Assembly (NCBI RefSeq): GCF_013282745.1
Contig: NZ_CP054044.1
Span: 744,001 to 808,000 of the forward strand
Source of the DNA: Yersinia bercovieri ATCC 43970
GTDB taxonomy: Bacteria > Pseudomonadota > Gammaproteobacteria > Enterobacterales > Enterobacteriaceae
DNA length: 64,000 nucleotides
Reading direction: 5' to 3'
The notes beneath the pieces were generated by a model. The model did not search any database. It was not told where the DNA came from and worked only from the letters and a program-made list of their open reading frames with translations. This document shows positions 16,204 through 38,161 of this stretch, one piece after another. How positions within the stretch are numbered: position 1 is the stretch's first letter; each line of letters opens with the position of its first letter. The position numbers were made by a program, and so were the translations under genes.

Positions 16204-16208
16204 AGGAT

Positions 16209-16715: not shown

Positions 16716-16742
16716 TTTAAAAAAAATCCTGTTATAAAATAC

Positions 16743-18077: not shown

Positions 18078-18523
18078 AATATTTTTTTCCCCATACTGGC
18101 ACGTTGTGCAAATTCATCCATCATCTTCTGTTCCAGACGATTCTCTTTTAATAGTCTCGCCGCATCGCCTCTGCTTTTCAGTGTCTCAAAGGCGTTGAGA
18201 CGTTTCTTATCACGTTTCCAATCCAATAATGTCTCTTCGACCGAGTTCTGGCATTTCTCCACATGGCCGGCATGTTGTTTGACGACCTGCCCCAGTGAAT
18301 CAATAAAAGATTGTCGGTTTAGCAAGTCAGCTATCAGAATACCTTTACCTGAAATATTGGCGCGTAGTTGCTGCTGGTATTCCAATTCGAAACTTTCCAG
18401 TTGTTCATGTTGTATCGTGGCCTGAGTGTACACTTGCTGCACTTTGCCTAATTGAACAGTAGTGTCACTCAACGTTTGCTCTGCAAGATCGCGTAGGACA
18501 TCCATTGGACTGGTAATTGCCAT
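18074..18523 (-). CDS. fliJ: Flagellar export protein FliJ
   Basis: Coiled-coil protein that plugs the FliI hexamer like the gamma subunit of F-ATPase and couples it to FlhA. The 149 residues are predicted almost wholly helical, with Gln/Glu/Lys-rich heptads (EQLESFELEYQQQLRAN) and no hydrophobic segment. It lies between fliI and fliK. Confidence 0.93.
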   Translation of the reverse strand: MAITSPMDVLRDLAEQTLSDTTVQLGKVQQVYTQATIQHEQLESFELEYQQQLRANISGKGILIADLLNRQSFIDSLGQVVKQHAGHVEKCQNSVEETLLDWKRDKKRLNAFETLKSRGDAARLLKENRLEQKMMDEFAQRASMGKKIL

Positions 18524-18525
18524 GA

Positions 18526-19908
18526 TTAATTGCTCATATTAGAACTGTCGGAAAACATGTCAGAAAGCCTGTCGCAGGCCTCCTCATAACCACTACTCTC
18601 ATAGATGACCTGCTGCAAAAAACGCTCCATATCGGGATATAAGCGGATGGCTTTATCCAGTAATGGATCGCTGCCTGCCGCATAAGCCCCGACACTGACA
18701 AGATCACGATTTCGTTGATATGATGAGAGTAACTGCTTAAAAGACTGCACTTTTTTGTAATGCGTTGCGTCAATCAACTCTGTCATTGCGCGGCTTATTG
18801 ATGCTTCAATATCGATGGCCGGATAGTGGCCGGATTCAGCAAGCCGCCGTGATAGAACAATGTGCCCATCAAGAATGGCGCGAGCGGAATCTGCTATCGG
18901 ATCTTGTTGATCATCGCCCTCGGTCAACACCGTATAAAATGCGGTGATTGACCCACCCTCTTTGACGCCGTTACCCGCTCGCTCCACCAGGGCAGGTAAT
19001 TTTGCAAACACTGATGGGGGATAACCCTTGGTTGCAGGTGGTTCACCAATGGCCAAGGCGATCTCACGTTGTGCCATGGCGTAGCGTGTTAGCGAATCCA
19101 TTATGAGCAGTACATCCATGCCCCGATCACGGAAGTCCTCAGCAATACGGGTGGCGTATACCGCGCCTTGCATACGCAATATAGGCGAGACATCCGCAGG
19201 TGCCGCGATAACCACGGAGCGAGTTCGCCCCTCTTCACCTAGAATATTTTCGATAAAATCTTTCACTTCTCGGCCACGCTCGCCGATAAGTCCTACGACG
19301 ATAACATCAGCTTTGGTATAGCGTGCCATCATGCCGAGTAGCACACTTTTCCCCACCCCAGAACCGGCAAACAGCCCCATGCGCTGGCCTCGTCCTACAG
19401 TCAGCAGCCCATTGATGGCTCTGACGCCGACATCCAGCACATGCTTAATTGGATCTCGTAATAGTGGGTTAACCGGTTGCGTAAATAAGGATCCGTGCTT
19501 TGCACAACCTGGGGGCGGTAGCCCGTCAAGTGGTCGTGCACTCGCATCCAGTACTCGGCCTAAGAGTTCCGGCCCCAACGGTAACTGTTTCCCCTTGGTG
19601 ATACCGGCACCACTTTCAAACGCATAAACCCGCGCCCCAGGTAGAATTCCATCAACATTTTCAAGTGGCATCAAATACAGGATTTCACCATTGAAACCAA
19701 CAACTTCACTTTCTATTTTATCCGTGCCATTACCTCTATTTCGCTCAACAATGCAAAGAGTGCCAATGGGTAATTTCAGGCCAACAGCCTCCATCACCAA
19801 TCCTGTTGCCCGCGTTAATTTTCCATATTGCTGGAAAGGCGGCAGCGAGATGATCTGTTTCTCTTTTCTATCAATGGCATCCAGCCAGTTTTTTAGGCGC
19901 AGGGTCAT
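18526..19908 (-). CDS. fliI: Flagellum-specific ATPase FliI
   Basis: Type III export ATPase, homologous to the F1 beta subunit. The 460-residue protein has Walker A ([17 protein letters not shown]), the catalytic region [13 protein letters not shown], Walker B ([20 protein letters not shown]) and the tail region [10 protein letters not shown]. Length matches E. coli FliI (457). It overlaps fliH by four bases. Confidence 0.97.
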
Positions 19909-20612
19909 GAGGGATAATCCTCACGTCCGAGTTCACACAGCGCTTGCCAGCGCGTTGTCATTGTCGCGTCGAACTCCCCCTCCGCCGAGGTTATCCGGCA
20001 GCCGCCGGGTAGAATTTGCGCGTCAGAACGCAACTCCCATCCCAATGACTCAAGTGACTTACCGACGTTTTGCTCAACGATGTCGACATCCGCAGGGTTA
20101 ACCCATAACTGTGCTTTTCCCTTAAAGAGGGTTTCTTCTTGTAGCAACTGCTGAATTTTTTCTAGCAGCACTTCATTGTCACAAACAATATTCTTACCCA
20201 AGATCGCGCGAGCAGCAGTTAAGGATAATTGCACTAAGCGGGATGGAATCACGCTATCAAGGTTGTCCAGAGCTACCCGAAACGCTTCAAGCAGTGTGGA
20301 AAAACGCGCCCCTATTTCACTTTGCTGTAGATTTGCCTCGGTAAGCCCCTGTTCGAAGCCCTCTTTTTGTCCTTGGCTAAACCCAGCTTCGTAGCCCTGC
20401 TTTTTTCCCTCTTCAATACCGCTGGCCTGTCCCTTGGCAAACCCCTTTTGTTCCGCTTGTTGGCGAAGCCGTGAGAGTTCAGCCTGCAGTAGCTCATCGG
20501 AATGATGGGGGCTTGCCGACTCAATAATCTCATGCTCAGACTGATCATATTCACCCAGTAAATTCTGCGGCTGCCAGCTTTGCCAGTCGAGTTTTGGTTC
20601 ATTATCAGACAT
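19905..20612 (-). CDS. fliH: Flagellar export regulator FliH
   Basis: Stator-like regulator that dimerises, binds FliI and anchors it to FliN. The 235 residues show the typical central helix with repeated GxxxG-type spacing ([20 protein letters not shown], then [17 protein letters not shown]). ATG 20612 ([13 protein letters not shown]) is preferred over an earlier in-frame start because it matches FliH N-termini and overlaps the fliG stop by eight bases. Confidence 0.94.
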
Positions 20613-21591
20613 AGGCATCGTCACTGCCCCCAATTGCCACATCACCGGATTCAGCTAACCGTCTAACAATCAATAGGATACTCTTCTGTTCAGCTTCGAC
20701 TTGAGACATACGAATTGGCCCACGAGAACCAAGATCTTCCATCATTATCTCCGCCTGACGTCTGGACATATTTCGGAAGAACTTATCGCGAAGTGCCGCA
20801 TCGGCTCCTTTAAGGGCGATGATCAGTGACTCGTTCTCAATTTCCTGGAGAATGCGCTGAATACTGCGATCTTCAATTCCAACCAGATTTTCGAACAAGA
20901 ACATTTCATCAATAATTTTCTGTGCCAACTCTTGGTCAAATTCACGAACAGCCTCAATTGCAGCCTCTTCCAACTGAGATTTCATCAAGTTAAGAATTTC
21001 AGCCGCAGGGCGTACCCCACCCATTTTGCTACGTTTCAAGTTCTGTCCATGCAGCAGACCATTGAGCACTTCTGTCAGCTCCTGCAGTGCCGCCGGTTGA
21101 ACACCGCCAAAAGTAGCAATACGTAGCATAATGTCATTACGTTCACGATCATCAAATTTGCTCAATACATCAGCAGCTTGCCCACGTTTAAGGTGAACAA
21201 GGATGGTGGCTATAATTTGCGGGTGCTCGTCACGAATTAAATCGAATGCCACCTGAGGCTCCATAAAGTTCAGCGTCTCAATACCATTTGTGCCATTTTG
21301 CGTATCCAGTAAATCTTCAAGTAAGCTCGATGCTCTCTCTTCACCTAATGCTTTCACCAGCACACTGCGCAGGTAATCATTGGTATTGACACTCAGTGCT
21401 GCAAACTCACTGGAGTCGCGCTGAAACTCTTTCAGGACGGAACTAAGCTGTTCATGGGTAAAACCGCCCATGTTGACCATCGACCCACTAATTTGTTTCA
21501 CTTCGTGCGTACTGAGATGCTTGAATACTTCAGCAGCCAGTCCATCACCGAGTGTCAACATGACAATTGCACTTTTATCAGAGGCATTCAT
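20605..21591 (-). CDS. fliG: Flagellar motor switch protein FliG
   Basis: C-ring protein that interacts with MotA and transmits torque. The 328 residues run from [20 protein letters not shown] through the middle PAA-containing ARM repeats to the C-terminal torque helix with charged residues ([19 protein letters not shown]). Length is close to the E. coli 331. The start codon overlaps the fliF stop by one base (TAATG). Confidence 0.97.
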
Positions 21592-23300
21592 TATGATTTC
21601 AGCTCCTTGTTAATCCACTCGCGAATGACCAGAGCAACAACCCGAGGCTCCTGTTCTGCCAATTCCCGCAGATTCTGCGTATTAAGTTCAGCTTCGACGC
21701 GTTGTTCCGCTTTGGCTCTTTCACCACTTTCAGCTTTACGCTTATGCGCATCCAGTTCTGCCTGACGAGCTTCTTTCTCTAATTCCAAACGAGCCAATAT
21801 CAGTTCTTGGTTTCTCAGCCATGCAGGTTTGATAGCCTTGCGCCAGAATAGCCAAGCCACAATCGCCACCAATAAATAGCGACCCGCCGCCATTAACAGA
21901 TTAATAAAGCCGGCTTGCTGCCAAAATGGCGGTGCAACCTCCTCTTCAACATTGTTGAAAGGAGAATTAACAATATTTACCGTGTCACCACGCTCCGCAG
22001 AAAATCCTACGGCCTCTTTCACTAATGCGCTGATCTGCTCCATCTGCTCTTTGGGTAGAGGGGCAGATTCACCCTCTGCGGTCGGTAAGTAATTAATCAC
22101 GACAGCAATAGAGAGACGTTCGATACTGCCGGTACTGCGCTTGATGTGAGTCAGTGTTCGATCAAGTTCGTAGTTGGTGGTGTTATCCCGACGATTGTTG
22201 AAAGGTATCGGAGTTGCGACTGTCGCCGCGCCACCTTTGGCCCCTGTCGCTCCTGCTGTTGCTGCACCTGCCGCCCCAGTCGCGCCAGGTGCCGTCGGCG
22301 TAGCCGCTTGAGTTATCGGTGCAGTCGCAGGAAGCGAGGGTTGATTGCTTAATGCGCCCGGTACGCCACCCACACCACCCTTGCCGCCCTGCTCAGCGTC
22401 ACTGGATTGGCTGCTGCGGATCGACATCCGATCAGGTGCCGTATTCGGTTGAAATTGTTCAGCCGTTTGCTCGTGTAAAGTGAAGTCAAGCTGTGCTGTC
22501 ACCTGCGATTTGACGTTATTGCGCCCAACAATTGGGGACAGAATCGACTGAATACGCTGCTGAAAATCAGCTTCCACTTCACTGGTGAATTTAAGCTGCG
22601 AGGTCTGAGTCGTTTGGCCCCCACGCTGCGTTAACAGACGACCGTTTTGATCCACAATCGTGACGCTATCGGCACTCAAACCCGGTACTGCGCTGGCAAT
22701 AAGATAAGTGATCGCACTTACTTGTTCGCCTTCCAGTAAGCGCCCATTATTCAGACGGACGGTCACTGATGCGGATGGCTGTTTTTGCTCACGAACAAAC
22801 ATTGAGGGCTTTGGCATAGCCAAATGCACACGAGCGCCATTGACTGAGCCAAGGGTTTCAATCGTGCGTGACAACTCCCCTTCCAACGCACGCTGGAAGT
22901 TAACTTGCTCACTAAATTGGCTGATACCAAACTTTTCCTGGTCCAGTAATTCAAACCCAACGGCTCCGCCCTTGGGTAATCCGAGTTGAGCAAGTTTGAG
23001 GCGAGCTTCATAGACTTTATCGGCAGGCACCATAATCGCCCCGCCACGATCTTCAAAACGATAGGGCACATTCATTTGTGCCAATTGCGAGACAATAGCC
23101 CCACCATCTTGATCCGTAATGTTACTGAACAAAACCCGGTAATCCGGTGATTTTGCCCAAAATAATAGTGCGATAATAAGCGTTATGGCCGCTGAAGCAC
23201 TGATAAGCAGAATAATCTTAGGGCTGGAACGAATACGTTCTAATACTGCCATAAGATTAGCTGTACTGGTTTTTTTGATACCATTTGTCGTGGCATTCAT
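21591..23300 (-). CDS. fliF: Flagellar MS-ring protein FliF
   Basis: Builds the MS ring in the inner membrane around the export gate. The 569 residues contain TM1 at about 31-50 and a ring-building YscJ-like domain. A periplasmic part follows with a Gly/Ala/Thr-rich insert at about 325-370 ([19 protein letters not shown]), then TM2 near 460 and a cytoplasmic FliG-binding tail. First gene of the fliFGHIJK operon, divergent from fliE. Confidence 0.97.
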
Positions 23301-23449
23301 GCCGTAGTCCTGTAAAAAAATTAATGACGCAATATAGACGTGTTATTGCGAATCAGCACTCCGGTTACGGGGATGAAGAAACGAAGCGGTAAATACACTG
23401 ACATAATTCAAGTCGCGTATTATCCCCTAATTGTATTTTTTTTAAGTCT

Positions 23450-23479
23450 CGATAAGCTGAAATTTTCGTCAGCTTATCG
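23450..23479. promoter_or_regulatory. Inverted repeat in the fliF-fliE divergent promoter region
   Basis: Perfect 11-base arms CGATAAGCTGA/TCAGCTTATCG with an eight-base spacer, midway between two divergent operons that FlhD4C2 is expected to control. It could be an operator or a hairpin. The half-site ATAAGCTGA recurs in the palindrome ahead of srfA. Confidence 0.45.
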
Positions 23480-23578
23480 GATTATTTTATTTGTAGCTTG
23501 CTATGTTAAGCTTTGGTTATTAAATACGAAGTAAGAAAAGCAAGTAAATCTCAATACGTAGATTTAAAGGAATTAGTG

Positions 23579-23914
23579 ATGTCTATTCAATCGATCAGTG
23601 GTGTTCTGGAACAAATTAACTTCCAGGCCCAGCAAGTTTCAAACACTCAACGATCGCCATTCATCTCAGATCGTCAAGGTGTTGAAAAACCACTACAATT
23701 TTCTGACATACTGTTTAGCAGTGTTAATAGTATCAATGAAATACAAACCCAGGCTAAAAGTCAGTCACAAGACTATCTGACAGGCGCAACTGACATTGGT
23801 CTTAATGACGTAATGGTTTCTTTGCAGAAGTCATCTCTGGCATTAAATTTAGGTGTTCAGGTGCGTAATAAATTAGTTAGTGCGTACCAAGAAGTCATGA
23901 ACATGTCAGTGTAA
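23579..23914 (+). CDS. fliE: Flagellar hook-basal body complex protein FliE
   Basis: First periplasmic rod-side subunit exported; it joins the MS ring to the rod. The 111 residues end in the conserved SSLALNLGVQVRNKLVSAYQ segment followed by EVMNMSV. ATG 23579 follows an AAAGGAAT ribosome binding site. An upstream extension of the frame is ignored because it does not match FliE. A single gene divergent from fliF, followed by 210 bases before cheR. Confidence 0.96.
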   Translation: MSIQSISGVLEQINFQAQQVSNTQRSPFISDRQGVEKPLQFSDILFSSVNSINEIQTQAKSQSQDYLTGATDIGLNDVMVSLQKSSLALNLGVQVRNKLVSAYQEVMNMSV

Positions 23915-24124
23915 GTAAACTGCCTAACATATTTGTTAATAAGCAATATAGTCTACTGATAATTTTCACCCTATTTTCCGTAGGCATCTGTGACTTCTAA
24001 GTTCCCGAAGCAGAATCGGCTCTTTTTCACTAAATGCCCGCACCAAGATACAGCAGTATTGAGATGTTCTCAATCTTACATGCGTACAGTTATTATCTAG
24101 CAGAAACATTGGCGAAATTCAAAA

Positions 24125-24961
24125 TTGAATAATACAAAATTACGTATTCAGGAAGAGCTCTCAGATAAAGACCTGCAAAAGATCAGTGAGTTAATTTATC
24201 AACGCGCAGGGATTGTATTAAATAATCAGAAGCGGGATATGGTCTATAACCGCCTTTCTCGGCGGTTACGTGATTTAAAAATGACCAGTTTTACCGAGTA
24301 TTTAGTGCGGCTCGAATCAGATAAGAATAGCGATGAGTGGCAAGCCTTTATCAATACGCTAACAACTAATTTGACGTCATTCTTTCGGGAGGCATACCAC
24401 TTCCCTATCTTGGCCGAACATGCCCGTAGCAGAGGGTCAAATTATACCGTGTGGTGCGCGGCGGCCTCGACAGGGGAAGAGCCTTGCTCTATTGCAATGA
24501 CACTGCATGAGAAATTAGGTTCCAGTATTGCCGGTCCAAGAGTATGGGCGACAGATATAGATACTGAGGTGTTAGGTAAAGCAAAAAATGCGGTTTATCG
24601 ATTATCCGATCTGGAAAGCCTGACCCAGGATCAAAGAAAAAACTATTTTTTGCAGGGAACCGGAGCACAAGCGGGTTTAGTGAAAGTAAGAAAAGAATTG
24701 CTCTCAACTATTCAGTATCAACAACTTAATTTACTCGATCCAAATTGGGATATTCCTGCGCCCTTTGACGCTATTTTTTGTCGGAATGTCATGATCTATT
24801 TCGATCAGAAAACACAGGAAAAGTTGATGTCCCGCTTTGCCCGGATGCTGAAACCGGGAGGGATTTTATTTGCTGGCCATTCTGAACATTTTAACAATAT
24901 GAATGGGCCTTTCCGTCTACGTGGGCAGTCAGTGTATTACCTGGCTCAAGAGACATTATGA
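24125..24961 (+). CDS. cheR: Chemotaxis protein methyltransferase CheR
   Basis: Methylates glutamates of chemoreceptors using S-adenosylmethionine. The 278 residues show the N-terminal helical domain ([20 protein letters not shown]) and the SAM-binding Rossmann part with [15 protein letters not shown] and [14 protein letters not shown]. The only plausible start is TTG 24125 with no clear ribosome binding site: a stop codon lies 27 bases upstream in frame and the next ATG is inside the conserved domain. Translation may therefore be weak. It overlaps cheB by four bases. Confidence 0.94.
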
Positions 24962-26004
24962 AAAAGATAACTGTACTTTGTGTTGATGATTCGGCGTTGA
25001 TACGCAGTATTATGAGCGATATTGTGAATCAACAACCTGATATGGAAATGGTGGCTACTGCGCCAGATCCTATTATTGCCCGAGATTTGATCAAACTTTA
25101 TAACCCCGACGTATTAACGTTGGATGTAGAGATGCCGCGTATGGATGGTCTGGATTTTCTGGAACGTCTCATGCGTCTGCGCCCGATGCCCGTCATTATG
25201 ATCTCTTCCCTGACAGGTAAAGGTTCAGAGATAACACTGAGTGCGTTGGAATTGGGGGCGGTAGATTTTGTCACTAAGCCACAAATGGGGCTTAAGGATG
25301 GAATGATGCAATATATTGAAATTATTGCAGAAAAAATCCGTATAGCCTCGCGTGCTCAGGTGCGACGTAGTGGCAAACTGACCAGTCCACCTAAAGCCCT
25401 GACTATCCCATTGGTGGGTAGCGAAAAGATTATTGCGATCGGCTCATCCACTGGCGGCACAGAGGCCTTACGGCAGTTATTAATGCCAATGCCACTCAGT
25501 TGCCCTGGCATCGTGATAGCTCAGCATATGCCACCAGGATTTACCCGCTCTTTTGCCGAGCGCCTTAACAATCTCTGTCAGATAGCGGTAAAAGAAGCTG
25601 AAGATGGTGATCGCGTATTGCCTGGCCATGCCTATATCGCGCCGGGGGATCTGCATATGGAACTCATCCGTAGTGGTGCGAATTACCATATAAGTTTGAA
25701 TAAGTTACCTGCGGTAAATCGCCATCGTCCAGCGGTTGATGTCTTGTTTAAATCCGTCGCCAAATCTGCGGGGAAAAATGCAGTGGGCGCAATTTTGACT
25801 GGCATGGGTAACGACGGTGCCGCCGGGTTATTAGAGATGCGTAAAGCCGGTGCACACACACTGGCTCAAAGTGAGAAAAGCTGTGTGGTATTTGGTATGC
25901 CGCGTGAGGCGATTGCGCTCGGAGCAGCTTGCCAAACTGTAGACCTCGACGATATTAGCCAGCACATACTCAGTAGCATTGTCGGTCAGGCTCGCAGAAT
26001 TTAA
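24958..26004 (+). CDS. cheB: Chemotaxis methylesterase/glutaminase CheB
   Basis: Response regulator that removes receptor methyl groups when phosphorylated by CheA. The receiver domain has [13 protein letters not shown] with the phospho-Asp. A linker follows, then the catalytic domain with [10 protein letters not shown] (Ser), AQHMPPGFT (His) and [12 protein letters not shown] (Asp). At 348 residues it matches E. coli CheB (349). Part of cheRBYZ. Confidence 0.96.
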
Positions 26005-26030
26005 TTTAACTTACCCCCTACTCTCATTGG

Positions 26031-26055
26031 GCACCCTTCATTGGGTGCATTTTAC
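26031..26055 (+). other. Small hairpin between cheB and cheY
   Basis: GCACCC-TTCATT-GGGTGC followed by ATTTTAC. The weak T tract suggests at most partial termination or an mRNA end that favours cheY over cheB. Confidence 0.4.
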
Positions 26056-26072
26056 ATTTATAGGATACATAC

Positions 26073-26462
26073 ATGGCAGATAAGAATTTACGTTTCTTGG
26101 TTATTGATGATTTCGCCACAATGCGCCGAATCGTTCGTAATCTTCTTCAGGATCTTGGTTTCAAGAATATTGATGAGGCAGAAGATGGTCTGGATGCTTT
26201 AACCAAGTTACGTGCATCAAAATTTGATTTTGTGATAAGCGATTGGAATATGCCCAATCTTGATGGGCTGCAATTATTATCCGAGATTCGCAAAGATGAG
26301 AATCTGAATAAAATTCCGGTTCTGATGGTGACTGCCGAAGCAAAAAAAGAAAATATCATTGCTGCCGCTCAAGCGGGTGCGAATGGTTATGTGGTGAAGC
26401 CGTTTACCGCAGCCACACTCGAAGAGAAGTTAAACAAAATATTTGAAAAACTCGGATGGTAA
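26073..26462 (+). CDS. cheY: Chemotaxis response regulator CheY
   Basis: Single-domain receiver phosphorylated by CheA; CheY-P binds FliM and reverses the motor. In 129 residues all active-site positions are visible: D12/D13, phospho-acceptor D57 ([13 protein letters not shown]), the Thr in MVTAEA, and the Lys in VVKPF. It carries an AGGATA box and sits just before cheZ. Confidence 0.97.
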
Positions 26463-26465
26463 GCC

Positions 26466-27107
26466 ATGAATACATTACCAGGTAAGTCTTCAGAAGATAA
26501 TGATAAAGATATTTTTTCCCGTATTGGCCACCTCACGCGCTTATTACGCGACAGTATGGCGAGTTTTGGCTTAGATCGCGCAATTATGGATGTCGCGGAA
26601 GCCATCCCTGATGCCCGTGATCGTTTAAGTTATGTGGTTGGAAAAACATCTAAAGCAGCAGATTGCGCATTAAACTGCGTGGAAATAGCGCGTCCCCTTC
26701 AGGATGAGCTGAGTAACAATGCAACCGCACTAACTGAACGATGGGATGCATGGTTTGACGATCCAATTGAATTACCCATGGCTCGTGAATTGGTAACAGA
26801 TACCCGAGAGTTTTTGAGTAACACACCGAAAATTGCCAGCAAGACTAATGAGCAGTTAATGGAAATCATGATGGCTCAAGATTTTCAGGATCTCACCGGT
26901 CAGGTTATTCAAAATATGATGGCGCTGATAGAGAGTGTCGAAAAAGAGCTTATTCTCGTCTTGGTCGAAAATATGCCCAACTCGTCCTCATCTCCTGCTG
27001 AAAAATTAGATAATCTGAAAAATGGACCTCAGATTAACCAATCCGTCGCAGGTATTGTTGCCAATCAAGATCAGGTTGATGATTTACTCGAAACATTAGG
27101 GTTTTAA
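26466..27107 (+). CDS. cheZ: CheY-P phosphatase CheZ
   Basis: Dephosphorylates CheY-P. The 213-residue helical protein has the catalytic stretch MAQDFQDLTGQVIQNMM with the conserved Asp and Gln, and ends in the CheY-binding peptide DQVDDLLETLGF. Its presence places the chemotaxis system in the beta/gamma-proteobacterial type. It follows cheY by three bases. Confidence 0.96.
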   Translation: MNTLPGKSSEDNDKDIFSRIGHLTRLLRDSMASFGLDRAIMDVAEAIPDARDRLSYVVGKTSKAADCALNCVEIARPLQDELSNNATALTERWDAWFDDPIELPMARELVTDTREFLSNTPKIASKTNEQLMEIMMAQDFQDLTGQVIQNMMALIESVEKELILVLVENMPNSSSSPAEKLDNLKNGPQINQSVAGIVANQDQVDDLLETLGF

Positions 27108-27273
27108 CCCTCAACGTGGCCCAGTTACCTGAATGTCGCAAAGCCGTAGAAAATAGACACCTATTCACGGCTCCCGGACGATACATTCATGCAATGACCA
27201 CGTGTTATTTTTGATTCAGTCAACCATTCATTAATGTTAGCCAGCATCTGCGGCAGTTTGTTTAGTCGAGCCC

Positions 27274-28418
27274 ATGTCCGAAGAAAGTGATGTAGAAAAA
27301 ACAGAGGAACCCACCCCCAGCGACGCTCAAAAGCGCGTGAAGATGGGCAAATTCCGCGTTCTAAAGAGTTAACCTCAATACTGATGCTATTGGCAGGATG
27401 GTCTCTGATTCTAATTGGTGGCAATCATGTTGCCGGGAAACTTGTCCAGTTGCTGCATAACGGACTGATGTTTGACCGATTGATCGTACTTGATACTGAC
27501 GTGATGCTTATCCGGGTCTATGAGCTGTTTAAGATGGCTATTTTTTCGGTGCTACCCATCTTACTCGGCCTATTTGTAACCGGTATTGCATCACCGATGC
27601 TGCTCGGTGGGCTGAATTTAAGTGGCAAGTCATTAAAAGTAGATCTCAAGCGTTTGAATCCCTTATCCGGATTAAAACGTATGTTTTCGACACAAATGGT
27701 GTCCGAGTTATTAAAAAGCATCCTGAAAGTAATGCTGGTTGGTTCTGCCTGTGCCATTTTTATCTTGGGTAATAAAGCACATATGATCCAGCTTATTTAC
27801 GAGCCGATAAATATCGCCTTAAAGGATGCGCGAACCATTATTTCTGGATGTTTATTGATGGTTATTTTGGCACTGATCCCACTTGTGGGTTATGACGTCT
27901 TCTACCAGATAATGAGCAATCTTAAAAAGTTACGTATGAGTCGCCAAGAAATACGCGATGAATTTAAACAGCAGGAGGGGGATCCGCACTTAAAAGGCCG
28001 GATCAAGCAACTCCAACGTTTAGCCGCAAGCCAGCGAATGATGAGTGATATTCCCAATGCCGATGTCATCGTCAATAACCCCACTCATTATTCCATCGCC
28101 CTTAGCTATAAAGAGGGTGGAATGTTAGCCCCTACGATGTTGGCCAAAGGTGCTGGCGAGGTTGCATTACGCATTCGAGAAGAGGCCCTTAAGCATCGCA
28201 TTCCAATGCTTGAAGCACCGCCGCTGGCACGTGCCCTGTATCGTCATTGCGAGATAGGGGAACAGATCCCAACAGAATTGTATGGCGCGGTCGCCGAAGT
28301 TTTAGCCTGGGTATACAGCATAAAACGCTGGCGAAAAGGCAACGGAATACGTCCTAAAAAACCTGAAAATCTTCCTGTGCCTGCCGCACTGGATTTTGCA
28401 CAAGAGAGTAAAGAGTGA
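27274..28418 (+). pseudogene. flhB: Flagellar export switch protein FlhB, frameshifted
   Basis: FlhB controls the change of export substrate from hook to filament and cleaves itself at NPTH. The ATG at 27274 reads MSEESDVEKTEEPTP, a typical FlhB start, but then runs to a stop at 27370-27372. From 27318 onward the neighbouring frame continues the family sequence (QRRSKAREDGQIPRSKELTS), the membrane domain and the cytoplasmic tail with VNNPTHYSIAL. Five C residues at 27314-27318 would need to be six to join the frames, giving 381 residues, the normal length. The next in-frame ATG (27384) would drop about 37 residues. All neighbours are intact. Error, mutation or slippage cannot be told apart here. 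The stop overlaps flhA by four bases. Confidence 0.9.
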
Positions 28419-30526
28419 TGGCCAATTTAGCCACCAAATTACATCTACCGGATTTTAAACAAACGCAGTGGCAAATACTGGCAGGCCCAGTATTAATCTT
28501 GACCATTTTGGCGATGATGATATTGCCTCTGCCGCCGTTTATTCTGGATCTATTATTCACCTTCAACATCGTGCTCTCCCTGATGATTTTGTTGGTGGCT
28601 ATGTTTACGCAAAAGACACTGGAATTCGCAGCATTTCCTACTGTTTTGCTGTTTGCTACCCTATTGCGTCTGGCGTTAAACATTGCTTCGACCCGTATTA
28701 TCCTCATGTATGGTCACACGGGGGATGGGGCTGCCGGCCAAGTGATCGATGCCTTTGGCCATTTCTTGGTTGGCGGTAACTTTGCCATTGGTATTATTGT
28801 TTTTGTGATTTTAATCATCATCAACTTTATGGTCATCACCAAAGGGGCCGGGCGTATTGCTGAAGTCGGCGCTCGTTTTGTGCTTGATGGTATGCCCGGT
28901 AAACAGATGGCTATCGATGCCGATCTGAATGCGGGAATTATTGGCGAAGAAGAGGCAAAACGCCGCCGTAGCGATGTCACCCAAGAAGCTGACTTCTATG
29001 GTTCAATGGATGGCGCCAGTAAATTTGTGCGCGGTGATGCCATCGCAGGCTTGTTGATTATGGCGATTAACGTCATTGGCGGCCTGTTCATTGGCATTCT
29101 ACAACACGACATGTCGTTTTCTGAGGCAGCGGGAACCTACACTCTGCTGACGATCGGTGATGGCTTGGTCGCTCAGATCCCAGGTTTGATTATTTCAACT
29201 GCCGCAGGGGTTATTGTTACACGCGTTGCCACCGATCAGGATGTGGGTGAACAGATGGTAAGCCAGCTGTTTAATAACCCACAGGTTATGGTGCTGGCAG
29301 CTGGCGTTACCGGCCTGCTCGGGATCATCCCAGGTATGCCAAACTTTGTGTTCCTGCTGTTTACCGTGGGGCTACTGGCCCTTGCCTGGTGGATGCGCGG
29401 CCGCCAATTAGCTGATCCGACTGGCAGTAAGCGGGCAATGAGCAAGGAAGATAAAACGTCGAGTAAAGCGGAGGCACAGGCCGCGCAAGTCAGTGAAGCC
29501 TCATGGTCTGATGTACAGCACGAAGATGTTCTAGGCTTGGAAGTGGGCTACCGCTTGATCCCCATGGTAGACAGTGAGCAAAATGGTCAGTTATTGACAC
29601 GAATTCGCGGCATCCGTAAGAAGTTTGCTCAGGAAATGGGCTTCCTGCCACCTGCTGTACATATTCGTGATAATTTGGATTTAGCACCGACAGACTATCG
29701 TATCCTATTGAAAGGCGTGGAAATTGGTCGCGGAGAAATACAGCCAGAACGCTGGATGGCGATCAATCCTGGCTGCGCCGATGGGGAGTTGGCCGGTGAG
29801 GCTTGCCAAGATCCTGCCTTTGGTTTACCAGCAGTATGGATTGACGAGGTACTGCGCGAACAAGCCCAAACACTCGGCTACACTGTTGTTGATCCAAGCT
29901 CAGTTATCGCCACGCACTTGAATCATTTAATCTCAACCCATACCGATGAACTATTTGGCCGTCAGGAGACCCAGCAATTACTGGATCGTCTAACTAAAGA
30001 TATGCCTAAATTGGTTGAAGACCTTATTCCCGGCATCATCTCTCTGACCATCTTCCATAAGGTCTTGCAGAACTTATTGGCCGAACGTATTTCGATTCGT
30101 GATATCAGAACGATAATTGATACGCTTGCCGAATGCTCAGCGGTCCAAACTGACCCTGATGAACTCACCGCACAAGTGCGTATCAGACTGGGACGAGCTA
30201 TCACCCAGAAGTGGTTCCCTGGCAATGATGAAATTCAAGTAATCGGATTAGACCTTAATCTCGAAAGACTTCTCATTCAGGCGACCCAAAGTGGCAGTGC
30301 GATAGAACCCGGTATCGCCGATAACATCATGCGGCAAACTGAGAAAGCCATTTTGCAACAAGATGCGATAGCTGCACCGTTGGTACTGCTGGTCAACCAA
30401 CCTTTACGTTTCATGCTGTCACGTTTCCTGCGTCGGGCGTTCCCTCAACTCGCGGTATTATCCAACCAGGAAATCAGCAACAATCGCACTGTACGCATGT
30501 CATATATTATTGGTGGAAAAGAATGA
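28415..30526 (+). CDS. flhA: Flagellar export gate protein FlhA
   Basis: Proton-driven export gate ring; the cytoplasmic domain docks substrates and chaperones. The 703 residues have eight or so membrane helices in the first half and the conserved FHIPEP-family segment around RIAEVGARFVLDGMPGKQM. A four-part cytoplasmic domain ends in RTVRMSYIIGG. Length is slightly above E. coli (692). It overlaps flhB and flhE by four bases each, so it depends on translation through the frameshifted flhB. Confidence 0.97.
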   Translation: MMANLATKLHLPDFKQTQWQILAGPVLILTILAMMILPLPPFILDLLFTFNIVLSLMILLVAMFTQKTLEFAAFPTVLLFATLLRLALNIASTRIILMYGHTGDGAAGQVIDAFGHFLVGGNFAIGIIVFVILIIINFMVITKGAGRIAEVGARFVLDGMPGKQMAIDADLNAGIIGEEEAKRRRSDVTQEADFYGSMDGASKFVRGDAIAGLLIMAINVIGGLFIGILQHDMSFSEAAGTYTLLTIGDGLVAQIPGLIISTAAGVIVTRVATDQDVGEQMVSQLFNNPQVMVLAAGVTGLLGIIPGMPNFVFLLFTVGLLALAWWMRGRQLADPTGSKRAMSKEDKTSSKAEAQAAQVSEASWSDVQHEDVLGLEVGYRLIPMVDSEQNGQLLTRIRGIRKKFAQEMGFLPPAVHIRDNLDLAPTDYRILLKGVEIGRGEIQPERWMAINPGCADGELAGEACQDPAFGLPAVWIDEVLREQAQTLGYTVVDPSSVIATHLNHLISTHTDELFGRQETQQLLDRLTKDMPKLVEDLIPGIISLTIFHKVLQNLLAERISIRDIRTIIDTLAECSAVQTDPDELTAQVRIRLGRAITQKWFPGNDEIQVIGLDLNLERLLIQATQSGSAIEPGIADNIMRQTEKAILQQDAIAAPLVLLVNQPLRFMLSRFLRRAFPQLAVLSNQEISNNRTVRMSYIIGGKE

Positions 30527-30927
30527 AGTGCTCATCGTTAATAATGCTGCTGTCTTTGAGTATATTCCCACTGATGGCTTCTGCTGTCAGTGGCTCGTGG
30601 AGTGGCAGTGCCGCCGGTGGGGTTGTCAGTGTCGGGGGGCAAATATTGGCGAGCCGCCCATTAACACCGGCGTTTCCGCCTGGCGCGACGTTACACCGTA
30701 TTGCATGGCGTATTACACTGCTCTCTGCTGCCCCACCAGGATTACAAATAAAATTGTGCAGCCAGAAAAGCTGTATCTTGCTGGATTCACTCTCCGGGCA
30801 AAAGAGCCTCGACACATCATTCACCGCTCAGGGGCCTTTCTATTTTATCTATTCAGTAGAGAGCCGAGGGCAGCTCTTTCCTCCCCTTAATGTGGTAAGC
30901 AATCAACTGACCATTAATTATCGTTAA
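30523..30927 (+). CDS. flhE: Flagellar protein FlhE
   Basis: Periplasmic protein encoded after flhBA in enterobacteria; in Salmonella it limits proton leakage through the export apparatus. The 134 residues have a signal peptide (LIMLLSLSIFPLMASA, cleaved before VSGSW) and two Cys (LKLCSQKSC-type pair, here LCSQKSCILLD), likely a disulfide. It ends the flhBAE operon. Confidence 0.9.
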   Translation: MKCSSLIMLLSLSIFPLMASAVSGSWSGSAAGGVVSVGGQILASRPLTPAFPPGATLHRIAWRITLLSAAPPGLQIKLCSQKSCILLDSLSGQKSLDTSFTAQGPFYFIYSVESRGQLFPPLNVVSNQLTINYR

Positions 30928-31042
30928 TAATTAACTGGGTAAAAAATTTCAAATATAAGAGTATCATTGCGTCAGCAAGAGTGGGTAAATAGGAAGGTAG
31001 CATTGGGCTAATTGCCAATGCATCAAAGAGTAAAAGAAAGTT

Positions 31043-31075
31043 AAGGCTATTTTATTTTCAAAATAGCCTTTTTTG
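31043..31075 (+). terminator. flhBAE rho-independent terminator
   Basis: Perfect 11-base stem AAGGCTATTTT/AAAATAGCCTT with a six-base loop and a T run. It ends four bases before the fliT stop codon, so it separates the converging flhBAE and fliDST operons. Confidence 0.9.
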
Positions 31076-31078
31076 GGA

Positions 31079-31417
31079 TTAATGGTAGATAGAGGTAAAT
31101 TGTGATAGGTAAGCCTTATTGCACTTCTGTCCCTGATACAAAGAAGATATATCCTGCTTTAATACATCAAGACGCTCTTCGAGCACTTTCGTTATTTCAT
31201 CTTCATTTTCAAGCAAACTGGTTATAATCATACCCAAACTTTTCTTCTCATCTGGTATCATCTCTGTCGGTTGCGTTTCAATAAGAGCCTGCAAATTAAC
31301 AATATAAACCTCAGCTAATTCAATAAACTCCGTCCACTTTCCTTCCTTAACCATATCTAATAGGTTCAAATTTAATTTATAAATATTTTCGTAATCTTCT
31401 GATAGTTTATTAACCAT
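31079..31417 (-). CDS. fliT: Flagellar export chaperone FliT
   Basis: Chaperone for the cap protein FliD and, in Salmonella, an anti-FlhDC factor. The 112-residue helical protein is short and poorly conserved at sequence level, so the call rests on its position after fliS, its length and the pattern MVNKLSEDYENIYKLNLNLL. ATG 31417 overlaps the fliS stop by eight bases; a longer in-frame start is rejected. Confidence 0.82.
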   Translation of the reverse strand: MVNKLSEDYENIYKLNLNLLDMVKEGKWTEFIELAEVYIVNLQALIETQPTEMIPDEKKSLGMIITSLLENEDEITKVLEERLDVLKQDISSLYQGQKCNKAYLSQFTSIYH

Positions 31418-31817
31418 TTTTTTTCTGTGATTCCTTAGGTTCAATCTCCTTCCATGTATTGGCAAGGTTCGTTAATATTTCGCTGATGCTGGTGAGTTCT
31501 GAAGGTGAGTTGTGTAGATTGGCCTGAAGCAAAGTCCTTGACATATAATCATATAAGCGTTCAAGGTCCTGTGCGATATTCTGTCCTTTCTCATGATTCA
31601 ATGAGGCTCGCAATCCATTATCGATAATATTAATCGCTTTGGATATCATCTCCCCACGCTTTGCAATATTTCCATTTTCAAAATATATTTTTGCTCGTAG
31701 CACTGCATTAAGGGCACCATCCAACAGCATCGAAATTAACTGATGAGGTGACGCCCCCGCCAATTGGCTCTCCAGGCCAACTCGGGCGTAGGCTTTAATT
31801 CCCGGATTTGAATACAT
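31410..31817 (-). CDS. fliS: Flagellin chaperone FliS
   Basis: Binds the C-terminus of flagellin and prevents early polymerisation. The 135-residue four-helix protein has the motifs YARVGLESQLAGASPHQLIS, MLLDGAL and KAINIIDNGLRASL. Start at ATG 31817 (MYSNPGIKAYA), preceded by CGGAGA; a 15-codon upstream extension is not FliS-like. Confidence 0.94.
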   Translation of the reverse strand: MYSNPGIKAYARVGLESQLAGASPHQLISMLLDGALNAVLRAKIYFENGNIAKRGEMISKAINIIDNGLRASLNHEKGQNIAQDLERLYDYMSRTLLQANLHNSPSELTSISEILTNLANTWKEIEPKESQKKNG

Positions 31818-31877
31818 ATTTTCTCCGTAATAGATTGGCAGAAGACCTTCATCTCCTGCCAAATTAAGCTGAATAAC

Positions 31878-33332
31878 CTAGAGCGACGCCAAGATAGATC
31901 CTAGCTGGTTACTCAGGTTATTAAGTTTTGACATAGTGCTATCGAGATTCTGAAACTGCGCCCGGTAACGCTCCACCTGTGAGTCAATGAGCTTTTGGGT
32001 CTTTTCAATTTGGGTCGTCATCAATTTGACTTGCGAGTCAAGACTGGTCGTGGATGCCTTGATGACTCCATCAATCTTTTTATCTGTATCCCCAACATAG
32101 TTGGTAATCATCGAGTTCAGCGATGTTGCCAAGCCCTCATTATCGCCACGACCAATAAACATATTAGCGATACCATCGGGATTATTGGCGATGGCTTCAT
32201 CTAACTTGCCTTCATTCAGGGTCATTTGCCCGGTGGCAGCATCGATTTTGATCCCTAAATCAGCGAGTGAACCATAATCGTCTGACGAATCACCATAAAC
32301 ACCATTGACTGCAGAACGAAATTCACTCACCAGGCCACGCAAGGTGGAGTCACCCATCAGCGCACCATTCTGGCTATTCTGGGTAGCGACATCTGAGTCA
32401 GTTAAACCTGAGGTCTCGTTAGGCACATACTTGCTGGCTGCGCTCGTCAGATTGAGCAGGGCATTGTACTTCTCAACAAAGTCCTTGACGCCAGACTTGA
32501 TGGCTGACGAATCTCTCGTTAGCGTCAGCTGCTCTGATTTTCCCTCTTCCGATTCACTTTTCAGTACCAGTGTCACACCCGTAATGATGTCGGAGATGTT
32601 ATTTGTCGAGCGGGTATATTCACTGCCATCAACACTGAGTTTGGCATCTTGAGCCGCACTAACCGATGTCATGGCATCACCATTCGAAGTACCTTCCGGA
32701 TCATTACCGCCGTTTTGGGTGTTTAATATGCCACCCAATTGATCGTCACCCGTGACACTCACCGACATTTCGCCATCAGAACCGGTGTTTTTTGACGTCA
32801 GTACCAACTGATAGCCATCATCCGTGCGCTGCACTGAAGCAGTAACATCACTATCCTGCTTGTTAATAGCATCCTTGATTTGGTTCAGAGAGGTTTGATC
32901 ATCCTTCAGCTCAACGCTCGTTGTGTTACCATTTCCTGTGGTAATGGTAATAGTCCGAGTACCTCCAGCTTGATCACCCAGCCGGTCATCAGCGCTCTGA
33001 AACCCTTCGGTCCTGAGTTTGTGTGCCGTTGCCAGCTGATTAATCGTCACCACATGACTATCTGCATTGGCATCAGATGTTGCTGTTGCAGTAAAGGCCT
33101 TATTTGAACTGACAGTTAAAGTGTTAAATGCATCGCCAGTCAGTTTTTTAACGCTACTTTGCAATGCAGACAGTGAGCTGGAGATTTGTCCCCAGGCAGA
33201 AATTTTTGACTTATAACTGGTTTGCAGACGGGTATAGGGTGCCAGACGTGTCTGCTCCCCCGCCCTGATCTGTTCGAGCATGCTCGCAGTGTCTATGCCA
33301 GAGCCGATACCCAATGATGATAAAGTTGCCAT
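31878..33332 (-). CDS. fliD: Flagellar filament cap protein FliD
   Basis: Forms the cap that folds flagellin at the filament tip. The 484 residues begin MATLSSLGIGSGIDTASMLE, the conserved start, and end in a coiled-coil region (RYRAQFQNLDSTMSKLNNLS). The middle is variable, as expected for a surface protein. Preceded by AGGAGA and by a strong sigma-28 promoter; transcribed divergently from fliC. Confidence 0.96.
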   Translation of the reverse strand: MATLSSLGIGSGIDTASMLEQIRAGEQTRLAPYTRLQTSYKSKISAWGQISSSLSALQSSVKKLTGDAFNTLTVSSNKAFTATATSDANADSHVVTINQLATAHKLRTEGFQSADDRLGDQAGGTRTITITTGNGNTTSVELKDDQTSLNQIKDAINKQDSDVTASVQRTDDGYQLVLTSKNTGSDGEMSVSVTGDDQLGGILNTQNGGNDPEGTSNGDAMTSVSAAQDAKLSVDGSEYTRSTNNISDIITGVTLVLKSESEEGKSEQLTLTRDSSAIKSGVKDFVEKYNALLNLTSAASKYVPNETSGLTDSDVATQNSQNGALMGDSTLRGLVSEFRSAVNGVYGDSSDDYGSLADLGIKIDAATGQMTLNEGKLDEAIANNPDGIANMFIGRGDNEGLATSLNSMITNYVGDTDKKIDGVIKASTTSLDSQVKLMTTQIEKTQKLIDSQVERYRAQFQNLDSTMSKLNNLSNQLGSILASL

Positions 33333-33383
33333 TAAATTCTCCTATATAGAATTTATCTTATTTTATTTGCACTTCTCTATTAG

Positions 33384-33410
33384 CTATCGGTTTTAATCCG
33401 ATAAAGTTTA
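33384..33410 (-). promoter_or_regulatory. Sigma-28 (FliA) promoter of fliDST
   Basis: TAAACTTT, 11 bases, then ACCGATAG. The FliA consensus is TAAAGTTT-N11-GCCGATAA. It ends 52 bases before the fliD start codon. Confidence 0.8.
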
Positions 33411-33662
33411 ATTTTTTGTCACTAACTCATCAACCCAATATCCGTAAAAAAACACGCTCACGCTCTTTTCAACAAATAGATTTAGATATTTAGTCAATTG
33501 CGTTTCACCATCAATAGGCTAACCGTCAAATTACCGCCATTAGTGTAGGCATTTATGCAATTTGGCTATTTTGACCGTCAAATTAATAAATTAGCGTATA
33601 AAGAGAAACAACTCCACTTCATATTAAATTCAAAAAAAAACGAAAAAATTTGCCACAAGGCA
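33411..33662. other. Central part of the fliD-fliC divergent region
   Basis: The gap between fliD and fliC is 437 bases, AT-rich and gene-free. It carries one sigma-28 promoter for each gene at its two sides. I see no further recognisable site in the middle. Confidence 0.5.
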
Positions 33663-33689
33663 TTTAGATGTTTTTTTTAATGCCGATAT
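33663..33689 (+). promoter_or_regulatory. Sigma-28 (FliA) promoter of fliC
   Basis: TTTAGATG, 11 bases (mostly T), then GCCGATAT. The -10 box is seven of eight to consensus; the -35 box is weaker but resembles TTTAGTTT at flgK and flgM. It ends 80 bases before the fliC ATG. Confidence 0.65.
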
Positions 33690-33769
33690 ATTTAACATGC
33701 GAACGAAACACGCATAGTTATATTGCAAAAGTATTGCAGTGTTAATCTATAAATATATGAGGCAATTTC

Positions 33770-34912
33770 ATGGCACAAGTCATTAACACCAACTCACTGA
33801 GCTTGGTAGCACAAAATAACTTAAATAAATCTCAGTCTTCACTGGGTACCGCAATTGAGCGTCTCTCTTCAGGTCTACGTATTAACAGCGCGAAAGATGA
33901 TGCTGCGGGTCAGGCGATCAGCAACCGCTTCACAGCGAGCATCAACGGTCTAAGCCAGGCTTCACGTAACGCCAATGATGGTATTTCTCTTGCGCAGACC
34001 ACTGAAGGTGCCCTGAATGAGGTGAACGATAACCTGCAAAATATCCGTCGACTGACCTTACAGGCGCAGAATGGCACCAACTCCGATTCTGACCGTCAGT
34101 CAATTCAGGATGAAATCGATGCACGTCTGGCAGAAATCAACCGTATCTCTGAACAGACTGAATTCAACGGTGTAAAAGTACTGAGTAAAGACCAGTCACT
34201 AAGCATTCAGGTGGGTTCCAACGATGGCCAGACCATTAGTATTGACCTGAGCAAGATGGACGCAACCACACTGAATATGGCTGATTTTAACGTAGCCTCC
34301 TCAGAGAGCAGCGTTGAAGGTTTTACCATCAAACAAGTGTCTGCAGGCATGACGTTAGAGGGCAAGGATGGTACTGATGATGTCTCAGTGACCTTAACCG
34401 CTACTGACATTGCAGCTATGGAGGAGGAAGCATTCGGGGTTGGCGGCTCAGGCACAGTCCATATGATTACAGATGATACGACTGGCGATATCAGCTTTGT
34501 TGCCATCGGTCAAAAGAGTGATGGTACAGAAGTTAGCATTAACTTAGACACTACATTTAATTTTACTGATACAGAAGTAACATTTGCAGCGGGCACGGCA
34601 GCAAGTGATACTGATCTGGAGATGATAGCTGGCGGAACAAGCACCCAGTTAGCTACGATTGATGAAGCATTATCGATGGTTGATGGACTACGTTCTAGCC
34701 TGGGTGCTTCCCAGAACCGTTTTGCTTCTGTTATCAGTAACCTGAACAGCACTGTCAATAACTTACAGGATGCGCGTTCACGTATCCTGGATGCCGACTT
34801 CGCGTCTGAAGTATCTGAAATGAGCCGTGCGAATATTCTGCAATCAGCGGGTATCAGTGTACTGGCCCAGGCAAACCAGGTACCTCAGAACGTACTGTCC
34901 CTGCTGCGCTAA
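33770..34912 (+). CDS. fliC: Flagellin
   Basis: Filament subunit. The 380 residues have the conserved D0/D1 ends: [20 protein letters not shown] and [18 protein letters not shown] at the N-terminus, and [20 protein letters not shown] at the C-terminus. The central variable domain is short (about residues 175-285) and acidic, so the filament surface is smaller than in E. coli FliC (about 500). Own sigma-28 promoter and terminator, so it is monocistronic. Confidence 0.97.
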
Positions 34913-34939
34913 TTACTCTTAATACCCTCTTAGCCCCTA

Positions 34940-34970
34940 AACCCAGCCCTCATCGGCTGGGTTTTTATTT
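34940..34970 (+). terminator. fliC rho-independent terminator
   Basis: Stem AACCCAGCC/GGCTGGGTT with a six-base loop, then TTTATTT. It lies 28 bases after the fliC stop codon. Confidence 0.9.
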
Positions 34971-35269
34971 AGAATAATATCCTCCCATAACTTATTAGTG
35001 TAACAGTCTATTTTCTGACTCTCTTTTATTAAAAAGCAGCATGACAAACGTCAATGAATATTTAATGAAGGTACATTATGATTTAATTGGCTATTTAGCC
35101 AGAGGACAAACACACCCACATAAATAAAAATTCAAAAGCAGTAACATATAAACCTCATCAACATTATTAGGATAACCACCGCTGACTGAATACCACAACA
35201 GATATGAGATGACTTGGTGAGTAACATGCCAGGAAAACAGCGATATCTTTACACTAAAAAGGATACACC
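34971..35269. other. Gap between fliC terminator and the following small ORF
   Basis: About 300 AT-rich bases without a gene. It should contain the promoter of the small ORF at 35270, but no clear sigma-28 or sigma-70 box was found by eye. Confidence 0.4.
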
Positions 35270-35497
35270 ATGAAAAACATGACTGACGAGAGAGAAATAT
35301 TGCTTAATGATGTAATGAATAAGATAAAGATAGATATCGAAAGTATTGTCAACCAATACACAGGAGAAGATCCCCGCATCGAGTTAATTTTAGATAATGA
35401 GTGTGCGGCATTTCAATTCTTACTTGAAAATGAGATTGAAGTAAAAGTAACACTCTCACGGACATTGAGTATTCTCCTGCAACCCCAAAAACAGTGA
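35270..35497 (+). CDS. Small acidic protein of unknown function next to flagellin
   Basis: A 75-residue frame with a good ribosome binding site (AAAAGGATACACC before ATG). It begins MKNMTDEREILLNDVMNKIK and is acidic, without signal peptide or membrane helix. The pattern suggests an N-terminal helix followed by beta strands (RIELIL, EVKVTLSRTLSILL). I recognise no family; it is not FlaG, FliS or FliT. It stands alone between fliC and mcp2 on the plus strand. A flagellar role is only suggested by location. Confidence 0.55.
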   Translation: MKNMTDEREILLNDVMNKIKIDIESIVNQYTGEDPRIELILDNECAAFQFLLENEIEVKVTLSRTLSILLQPQKQ

Positions 35498-35651
35498 ATC
35501 CATAAACCGTCCATTCATTATACTTTATAGCCCGTTTTAGCATATAAATGTCGCGTAGCCTGTCAATAACTGGGCAATTCCATAATATTAGTGCAGGTAT
35601 TTTACTGTGCTATTGCAGAAATAGGTAGAACAACGGGCGGGAAGAACCTAT

Positions 35652-35750
35652 ATGAAATCATCGCTTAATCAGATTGAATCGACAGAGGCCAATCCACATC
35701 AATCAATAAGCAAAAAATCTAATGTCGGTAATAGCAGAAGAGGGAAATGA
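35652..35750 (+). CDS. Possible 32-residue basic peptide
   Basis: ATG 35652 is preceded by GGGAAG at seven bases. The frame reads MKSSLNQIESTEANPHQSIS and ends in basic KKSNVGNSRRGK. It has no known relatives that I recognise and may be chance. The rest of the 369-base gap (35498-35866) shows only the mcp2 terminator. Confidence 0.22.
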   Translation: MKSSLNQIESTEANPHQSISKKSNVGNSRRGK

Positions 35751-35812
35751 GATTAACTAATGCAGAACATCAACATGATGTCGTGTTAATGCAGAGAATC
35801 GGGCAAATTGGC

Positions 35813-35846
35813 ATAATAAAAAAGCGGCAGAATATATCCTGCCGCT
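35813..35846 (-). terminator. mcp2 rho-independent terminator
   Basis: Perfect 8-base stem AGCGGCAG/CTGCCGCT with an eight-base loop. On the minus strand it is followed by a T run (CCGCTTTTTTATTATG). It lies about 20 bases past the mcp2 stop codon. Confidence 0.9.
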
Positions 35847-35866
35847 GGGACTATCGGATTAATTTA

Positions 35867-37387: not shown

Positions 37388-37458
37388 CTTTTTAACACTA
37401 ACAATATATAACAAAATAACCACCCTTATCACTTTTATAATTATTGCTGTTAATAAAA

Positions 37459-37485
37459 CAAACATAAGTGATTAACTTATGTTTG
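37459..37485. promoter_or_regulatory. 27-base interrupted palindrome at the 5' side of mcp2
   Basis: Perfect 11-base arms CAAACATAAGT/ACTTATGTTTG around GATTA. It covers the first possible mcp2 start codon (37465). It could be an operator for a dimeric regulator or a translation-blocking hairpin. Confidence 0.5.
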
Positions 37486-37503
37486 CCAAATACCGCATAG
37501 AAG

Positions 37504-37529
37504 TATCATGGATACAGAGTCCCATGATA
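37504..37529. promoter_or_regulatory. Second inverted repeat between cheW and mcp2
   Basis: Perfect 8-base arms TATCATGG/CCATGATA with a ten-base spacer, 19 bases from the 27-base palindrome. Together they make this 160-base gap unusually rich in symmetry. Function unknown. Confidence 0.35.
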
Positions 37530-37627
37530 AGAATGCGATAAGCATTAAGATAATAAACAGAGTATTCTAGCCTGCTATATTATTATAGAGGCTTATTTTT
37601 CCAAAAATAAAGAGTAGGACAGTCGTA

Positions 37628-38134: not shown

Positions 38135-38161
38135 TGAATTACCTCATTCAATCGATTCAAG

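What the first reader, a model, noticed from the sequence alone, without database searches (positions are those of the whole stretch)
27274..27400. flhB is split by a one-base shortfall in a C tract
The FlhB start MSEESDVEKTEEPTP and the remainder (from QRRSKAREDGQIPRS) lie in two frames joined at CCCCC, 27314-27318. With six C residues a 381-residue FlhB results, the normal length. All other flagellar genes read through. FlhB is essential for rod, hook and filament export, so this isolate may be non-motile from this locus. Alternatives: a sequencing or assembly error; an on/off slippage switch; -1 slippage, where the Pro tRNA on CCC can re-pair one base back; or a late ATG at 27384 lacking about 37 residues.
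Basis: partly seen in the sequence, partly recalled or inferred. Interest (0 to 1): 0.75.

Follow-up and report, generated by a model that had tools for sequence, protein, structure and literature searches.

The report
Probable assembly error in second flagellum
A gene of a second, already described flagellar gene set in a Yersinia genome looks broken, but the same genome assembly also shows the essential gene dnaA broken in the same way, so the break is most likely a sequence-reading error and not biology.

Summary
In detail: the two parts of flhB lie in different frames that meet at CCCCC, 27314-27318. It is most likely an assembly artefact. In 1.06 Mb of this chromosome, 654 reference ORFs of a sister species gave four further mid-gene breaks at G/C runs: metH, dnaA, pldB and an enoyl-CoA hydratase-family gene. 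All four shift the frame in the same sense as flhB. dnaA is essential (recalled), single-copy here, and in one open frame in 24 of 24 other Yersinia genomes. An uninterrupted 381-aa FlhB identical to both window pieces is in public data. The locus is not the primary flagellum: it fits flag-3b (PMC7526173), and the primary set, with an intact 384-aa FlhB, lies 2.35 Mb away. A loss of motility is therefore not expected even if the break is real. A phase switch, programmed slippage and a genuine late start are not supported. Caveat: the other four breaks are at runs of seven, and no G/C run of 3-6 was seen shortened (0 of 2151 sites, only 59 of them of five or six), so a real recent mutation stays possible.

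The parts
27274..27372 (+). First piece of flhB: correct N-terminus (15 residues), then out of frame to TAA
27314..27318 (+). CCCCC run at which the two frames meet
27291..28418 (+). Second open frame, holding the rest of FlhB (PF01312, 378.6 bits); its first usable start is ATG 27384 (344 aa)
27384..27386 (+). Late ATG, 11 nt after the TAA of the first frame; within the first membrane helix by my reading; not the start used in relatives
28415..30526 (+). flhA, uninterrupted; an ATG at 28418 overlaps the flhB stop by one base
12581..58216 (.). Flag-3b-type flagellar locus: fliR..fliF(-), fliE cheRBYZ flhBAE(+), fliTSD(-), fliC(+), mcp, cheWA motBA flhCD fliA, mcp, flgL..flgB(-), flgAMN(+)
   Evidence: genes not scanned with Pfam are named from position and from recall; order compared with PMC7526173

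Best explanation
The frame break in flhB is most likely a base-calling/assembly error in a G/C run, in an otherwise uninterrupted flag-3b flagellar locus of a Yersinia (probably Y. bercovieri). Shown: this assembly contains other one-sense frame breaks at G/C runs, one of them in single-copy dnaA, which a living cell could hardly tolerate. Inferred: that the flhB break, at a shorter run, has the same origin. The cell then makes an ordinary 381-aa FlhB, the export-gate and substrate-switch protein of its second, predicted peritrichous flagellum.
For: Survey of 1.064 Mb of G000 with 654 tested G015 reference ORFs (of 858) gave 17 candidate breaks. Seven of the 17 have a G/C run of four or more near the break, and all seven shift in one sense (net -1, or +8, which is the same modulo 3); the other ten are of both senses. 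Four of the seven are mid-gene with 88% identity or more on both sides: metH (G7), an enoyl-CoA hydratase-family gene (G7), dnaA (G7) and pldB (G7, the +8 case); the rest are flhB (C5) and two N-terminal cases, glpX and ref 354108. The reciprocal survey, 657 of 861 G000 references on G015, gave 9 candidates, none with a G/C run of four or more near the break. dnaA is single-copy in G000 and split in two frames; 24 of 24 other Yersinia genomes, G015 (source of the query) included, have it in one open frame, in G014 from the very start of a contig. Intact FlhB P0001 (cluster of 3 sequences on 25 contigs, longest 4.54 Mb against this chromosome's 4.33 Mb) is identical to the window on both sides of the break. 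All 48 ORFs of the orthologous locus have counterparts here. Deletions at homopolymers are the typical long-read error; in one MinION assembly deletion errors went with runs of two to eight (passages of PMC12007338).
Against: The four other mid-gene breaks are at runs of seven and flhB is at a run of five. Among 2151 orthologous G/C runs of 3-6 with identical 11-nt flanks none differed in length between G000 and G015, but only 59 of these were of five or six. Undercalling of short runs is thus not demonstrated. Five runs of eight G/C stand inside open ORFs of G000, so long runs are not always shortened. The genome is rated 100% complete, 0.01 contaminated. In PMC12007338 A/T runs gave about twice as many such errors as G/C runs, whereas here the clear mid-gene breaks are all at G/C. 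Reads and sequencing method were not available. Slippage mutations in living cells also favour runs, and 6 of 95 flag-3b loci carry transposases, pseudogenes or deletions (PMC7526173). The tool gives no sources for P0001, so its strain is unknown.
Confidence: 0.8

Rival explanations
1. A real, recent one-base mutation has inactivated flhB of the second flagellum in this isolate. Flag-3b export and filament assembly fail, while the primary flagellum still works.
For: The break is there in the deposited sequence at a run, a usual site of slippage mutation; no short G/C run is shown to be miscalled in this assembly; flag-3b loci with pseudogenes, transposases or deletions are on record (6 of 95). 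At least one other small break in this genome is not at a run and is probably real: a 101-aa gene with a net 31-nt loss.
Against: Same-sense G/C-run breaks in dnaA and three other genes make an artefact the simpler account. No second lesion was found in the locus, and the sequence on both sides of the break is identical to an intact public FlhB.
Confidence: 0.16
2. A truncated FlhB of 344 aa is made from ATG 27384, either as a normal late start or by re-initiation 11 nt after the TAA of the first frame.
For: The TAA at 27370-27372 lies 11 nt before ATG 27384, a geometry that suits re-initiation.
Against: Relatives keep the N-terminus: 78 of 80 loci and 119 of 120 listed homologues. [quoted passage not shown] The product would start within the first membrane helix (my reading).
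Confidence: 0.02
3. The run is a contingency (phase-variation) tract or a programmed ribosomal slippage site that regulates FlhB.
For: Homopolymer phase variation of flagellar genes is known in Helicobacter and Campylobacter (recalled; search listing only). A proline codon on a C run allows one-base re-pairing in principle.
Against: The run is only five long; the 64-kb window holds 52 G/C runs of five or more. Of 24 relatives' loci tried, the 18 that could be read (15 distinct genomes; three appear twice) all have a continuous frame, and the run is interrupted there in 8 of them (L036, L038, L039, L041-L045). I made no dedicated search for a stimulator structure.
Confidence: 0.02

Closest known systems
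Flag-3b supernumerary peritrichous flagellar locus of Enterobacterales (De Maayer et al. 2020, PMC7526173)
   Same: Block 3 (flgNMA-L, fliA, flhDC, motAB, cheAW), then an MCP island and block 2 (fliCDST), then block 1 (flhEAB cheZYBR fliE-R); no fliZ-like gene noticed; flag-3b is present in 39 of 394 Yersinia strains in that study
   Different: flhB is split in this assembly. A second MCP gene lies between fliA and flgL, in G015 too; I did not see whether the published loci have it
Primary flagellum FlhB (flag-1) of the same genome
   Same: Same family, same place after cheY-cheZ and before flhA
   Different: 56% identical over 343 residues; intact, 384 aa
Homopolymer indel errors of long-read assemblies (PMC12007338, passages)
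   Same: Gene-fragmenting, one-base, deletion-like, at homopolymers
   Different: The sequencing method of this genome is not known to me; there A/T runs dominated, here G/C runs

Membership tests
Flag-3b flagellar locus | Gene blocks in flag-3b order, no fliZ, MCP island beside fliC | tested here: met
   Gene order against the text of PMC7526173 section 6. Absence of fliZ rests on no such gene being seen, not on a dedicated search. Figures and supplementary tables were not seen.
Flag-3b flagellar locus | Clusters with flag-3b and not flag-1 in phylogeny | tested here: inconclusive
   Identity only: 86-88% to the second copies of three named Yersinia and of G015, 80% to Rahnella bonaserana, about 56% to flag-1 FlhB. 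No tree built.
Pseudogene (true inactivating mutation) | Break present in the organism, confirmed by independent reads | not testable with these tools
   No reads, no second assembly of the isolate
Homopolymer assembly error | Same assembly shows run-linked breaks of one sense in genes that must be intact | tested here: met
   dnaA, and with it metH, pldB and a hydratase gene; essentiality of dnaA is recalled
Homopolymer assembly error | Runs as short as the one in flhB are shortened in this assembly | tested here: not met
   0 of 2151 G/C runs of 3-6 (59 of them of five or six) with identical flanks differ from G015; the test cannot see runs whose flanks differ, flhB among them
Phase-variable contingency tract | Unusually long run, variable between clones | tested here: not met
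   Run of five, one of 37 G/C runs of five or more in the locus; variation between clones not testable

The most novel reading that the evidence does not exclude
The break is real and recent, and the second flagellum is kept working by exchange with the primary export gate (flag-1 FlhB, 56% identical) or by a re-initiated FlhB lacking its gate-entrance N-terminus, which would show that two peritrichous systems in one cell can share an export part.
Probability: 0.02. Interest if true: 0.5.

Novelty: not a real feature. Interest (0 to 1): 0.1.

Why it matters
It warns that single frame breaks in this assembly, in flhB and even in dnaA, should not be read as biology. If the break were real, it would be expected to disable only the supernumerary flagellum and not the primary one.

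Tried and rejected
Late start at 27384 as the normal start: rejected. Phase switch and programmed slippage: rejected for want of a long or conserved run. Primary-flagellum defect: rejected; flag-1 flhB is intact. Species identity: only one 20-kb plasmid stretch was compared (best match Y. bercovieri, 99.0% over 87%), so the species is probable, not shown. Terminal candidates of the frame survey that lie in ORF extensions upstream of the likely start were not counted as breaks, by inspection: glpX (its family profile starts at residue 47), the 274-aa ORF at C1:710058, flgI and flgH. The candidates with G015 references 39754, 335101, 354108, 395666, 414022, 701556 and 809184 were not resolved one by one; none of them is a mid-gene break at a G/C run with 88% identity or more on both sides. 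The nine G015 candidates were not resolved either. Inner-stop flags were looked at for seven G000 cases only; most sit within the first or last few residues. In one search, 6 of 24 loci did not fit the search pattern and were left out. Two of 80 loci lacked the expected start: L047 (end of contig) and L088 (see noticed). L115 and L119-L124 were fetched and not used. Papers: PMC7526173 abstract, sections 6 and 9 and passages; PMC7064499, PMC7911332 and PMC12007338 passages; PMC2831843 one passage of no use; all others search listings only. Searches for Yersinia + flhB + frameshift (16 papers) and for Y. bercovieri with flagella or complete genome and PacBio gave listings in which no title told of a broken flag-3b flhB; that is no proof that none exists.

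Full report
Observation. The finding is described correctly. ATG 27274 opens MSEESDVEKTEEPTP, then 17 unrelated residues to TAA 27370-27372. The rest of FlhB is in another frame, open from 27291, whose first start codon is ATG 27384 (344 aa) and which ends at 28418. The frames meet at CCCCC, 27314-27318. The second piece scores 378.6 bits with PF01312.

Which flagellum. The window is G000:C1:744001-808000 of a 4.40-Mb, two-contig Yersinia genome (genus from the named relatives). PF01312 has three matches: this locus, a second cheY-cheZ-flhB set at C1:3.125 Mb with an uninterrupted 384-aa FlhB, and a type III secretion SctU-like gene at 1.759 Mb (the SctU label is my reading). Of 49 window ORFs between 12581 and 58216, 48 have a match in the 100-kb region around the second set, a few of them partial; the one without is fliT, and one of the 48 (27161-27424, minus strand) is probably not a gene. 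The window locus has the gene blocks and order described for flag-3b (PMC7526173 section 6), found there in 39 of 394 Yersinia strains. So the window locus is a supernumerary flagellum, predicted peritrichous, and the primary set is elsewhere and intact at flhB.

Intact copies. The protein search scored 7999 candidates; 976 passed and 120 were listed, of which 119 are 379-383 aa long and one 354. P0001, 381 aa, stands for 3 sequences on 25 contigs, the longest 4.54 Mb. It matches the window at 15 of 15 residues before the break and at 367 of 367 from residue 15 on. The tool gives no source for it, and does not say how many of the 25 contigs carry the full-length form. In the genus search (25 genomes, own included) the six others with a second-type copy (G004, G015, G018, G024, G013, G014; 67-88% identical) have it without stops and with open frames of 386-398 codons, against 375 here. 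Of 80 related loci from named genomes, primary and second type mixed, 78 have a start 30-55 codons upstream in the same frame.

Is the assembly to be trusted at runs? I compared G000 with G015, a congeneric genome in one contig, over 1.064 Mb, window included, in steps. In the final survey 654 of 858 reference ORFs passed the identity and score limits and gave 17 candidate breaks; 46 of 49 flag-1 references gave none; the reciprocal test of 657 of 861 gave 9, none with a G/C run near the break. In G000 seven of the 17 have a G/C run of four or more near the break, all shifting in one sense. Four of these are mid-gene breaks at a run of seven with 88% identity or more on both sides: metH, an enoyl-CoA hydratase-family gene, lysophospholipase L2 (pldB) and dnaA (families from NCBIfam). 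flhB is the fifth; the other two are N-terminal, glpX (probably an ORF extension) and reference 354108 (not resolved). Other clear damage: a 101-aa gene at C1:722.5 kb with a net 31-nt loss, not at a run. dnaA is decisive: it is essential in this order (recalled), has no second copy in G000 (the other match is a 27%-identical paralogue), and is in one open frame in the 24 other Yersinia genomes. The assembly therefore very probably holds run-linked errors.

Limits. The flhB run is shorter than the other four. Orthologous G/C runs of 3-6 with identical 11-nt flanks agree in all 2151 sites, but only 59 of these are of five or six, so an undercall of short runs is neither seen nor well tested. 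In the same 1.064 Mb, 4 of 32 runs of seven G/C sit at a clear break, against 1 (flhB) of 972 runs of five or six (run counts, breaks); five runs of eight stand in open ORFs. A steep dependence on length fits base-calling error but fits slippage mutation too. A/T runs with identical flanks differ at 13 sites, in both senses, which I read as natural variation. What tips the balance for flhB is that a break of this sense in a G/C run is expected from the error, whereas a random inactivating mutation could have been of many other kinds. I put artefact at 0.8.

If the break were real. The first piece is too short to act. Translation could restart at ATG 27384, 11 nt after the TAA, giving FlhB without its first 37 residues. 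[quoted passage not shown] I would expect poor or no flag-3b export. Flag-1 would still serve motility. These are inferences.

Verdict. Ordinary: a known kind of locus with a probable sequence error.

Noticed in passing
G000:C1 about 1325620 (L193, 17620-17626): dnaA is split in two frames at a run of seven G/C; 24 of 24 other Yersinia genomes have it in one frame.
   Followed up: yes
G000:C1 about 1013717, 1433989, 1649254: metH, an enoyl-CoA hydratase-family gene and lysophospholipase L2 (pldB) are likewise split at runs of seven G/C.
   Followed up: partly
G000:C1:722544-722568: A 101-aa gene (monooxygenase-like by recall) has a net 31-nt loss with frame change, not at a run; probably a true pseudogene.
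   Followed up: partly
L088, upstream of 8001 (Kluyvera genomosp. 3 YDC799, CP022114): Another flhB whose N-terminal residues appear out of frame just before the same Pro-Thr-Pro codons, in a complete genome.
   Followed up: no
window 58415-62737: An ORF of 455 aa without Pfam match and an SrfB-family gene (PF07520) follow flgN; no match among ORFs of the 260-kb G015 region.
   Followed up: no
window 11548-12165: A LuxR-type regulator gene next to fliR, without a match among ORFs of the 260-kb G015 region.
   Followed up: no
G000:C2:1-20000: Plasmid stretch 99.0% identical over 87% to a Y. bercovieri plasmid; the matched stretch of that record lists a large-clostridial-toxin-like glycosyltransferase domain protein. 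Left alone.
   Followed up: no
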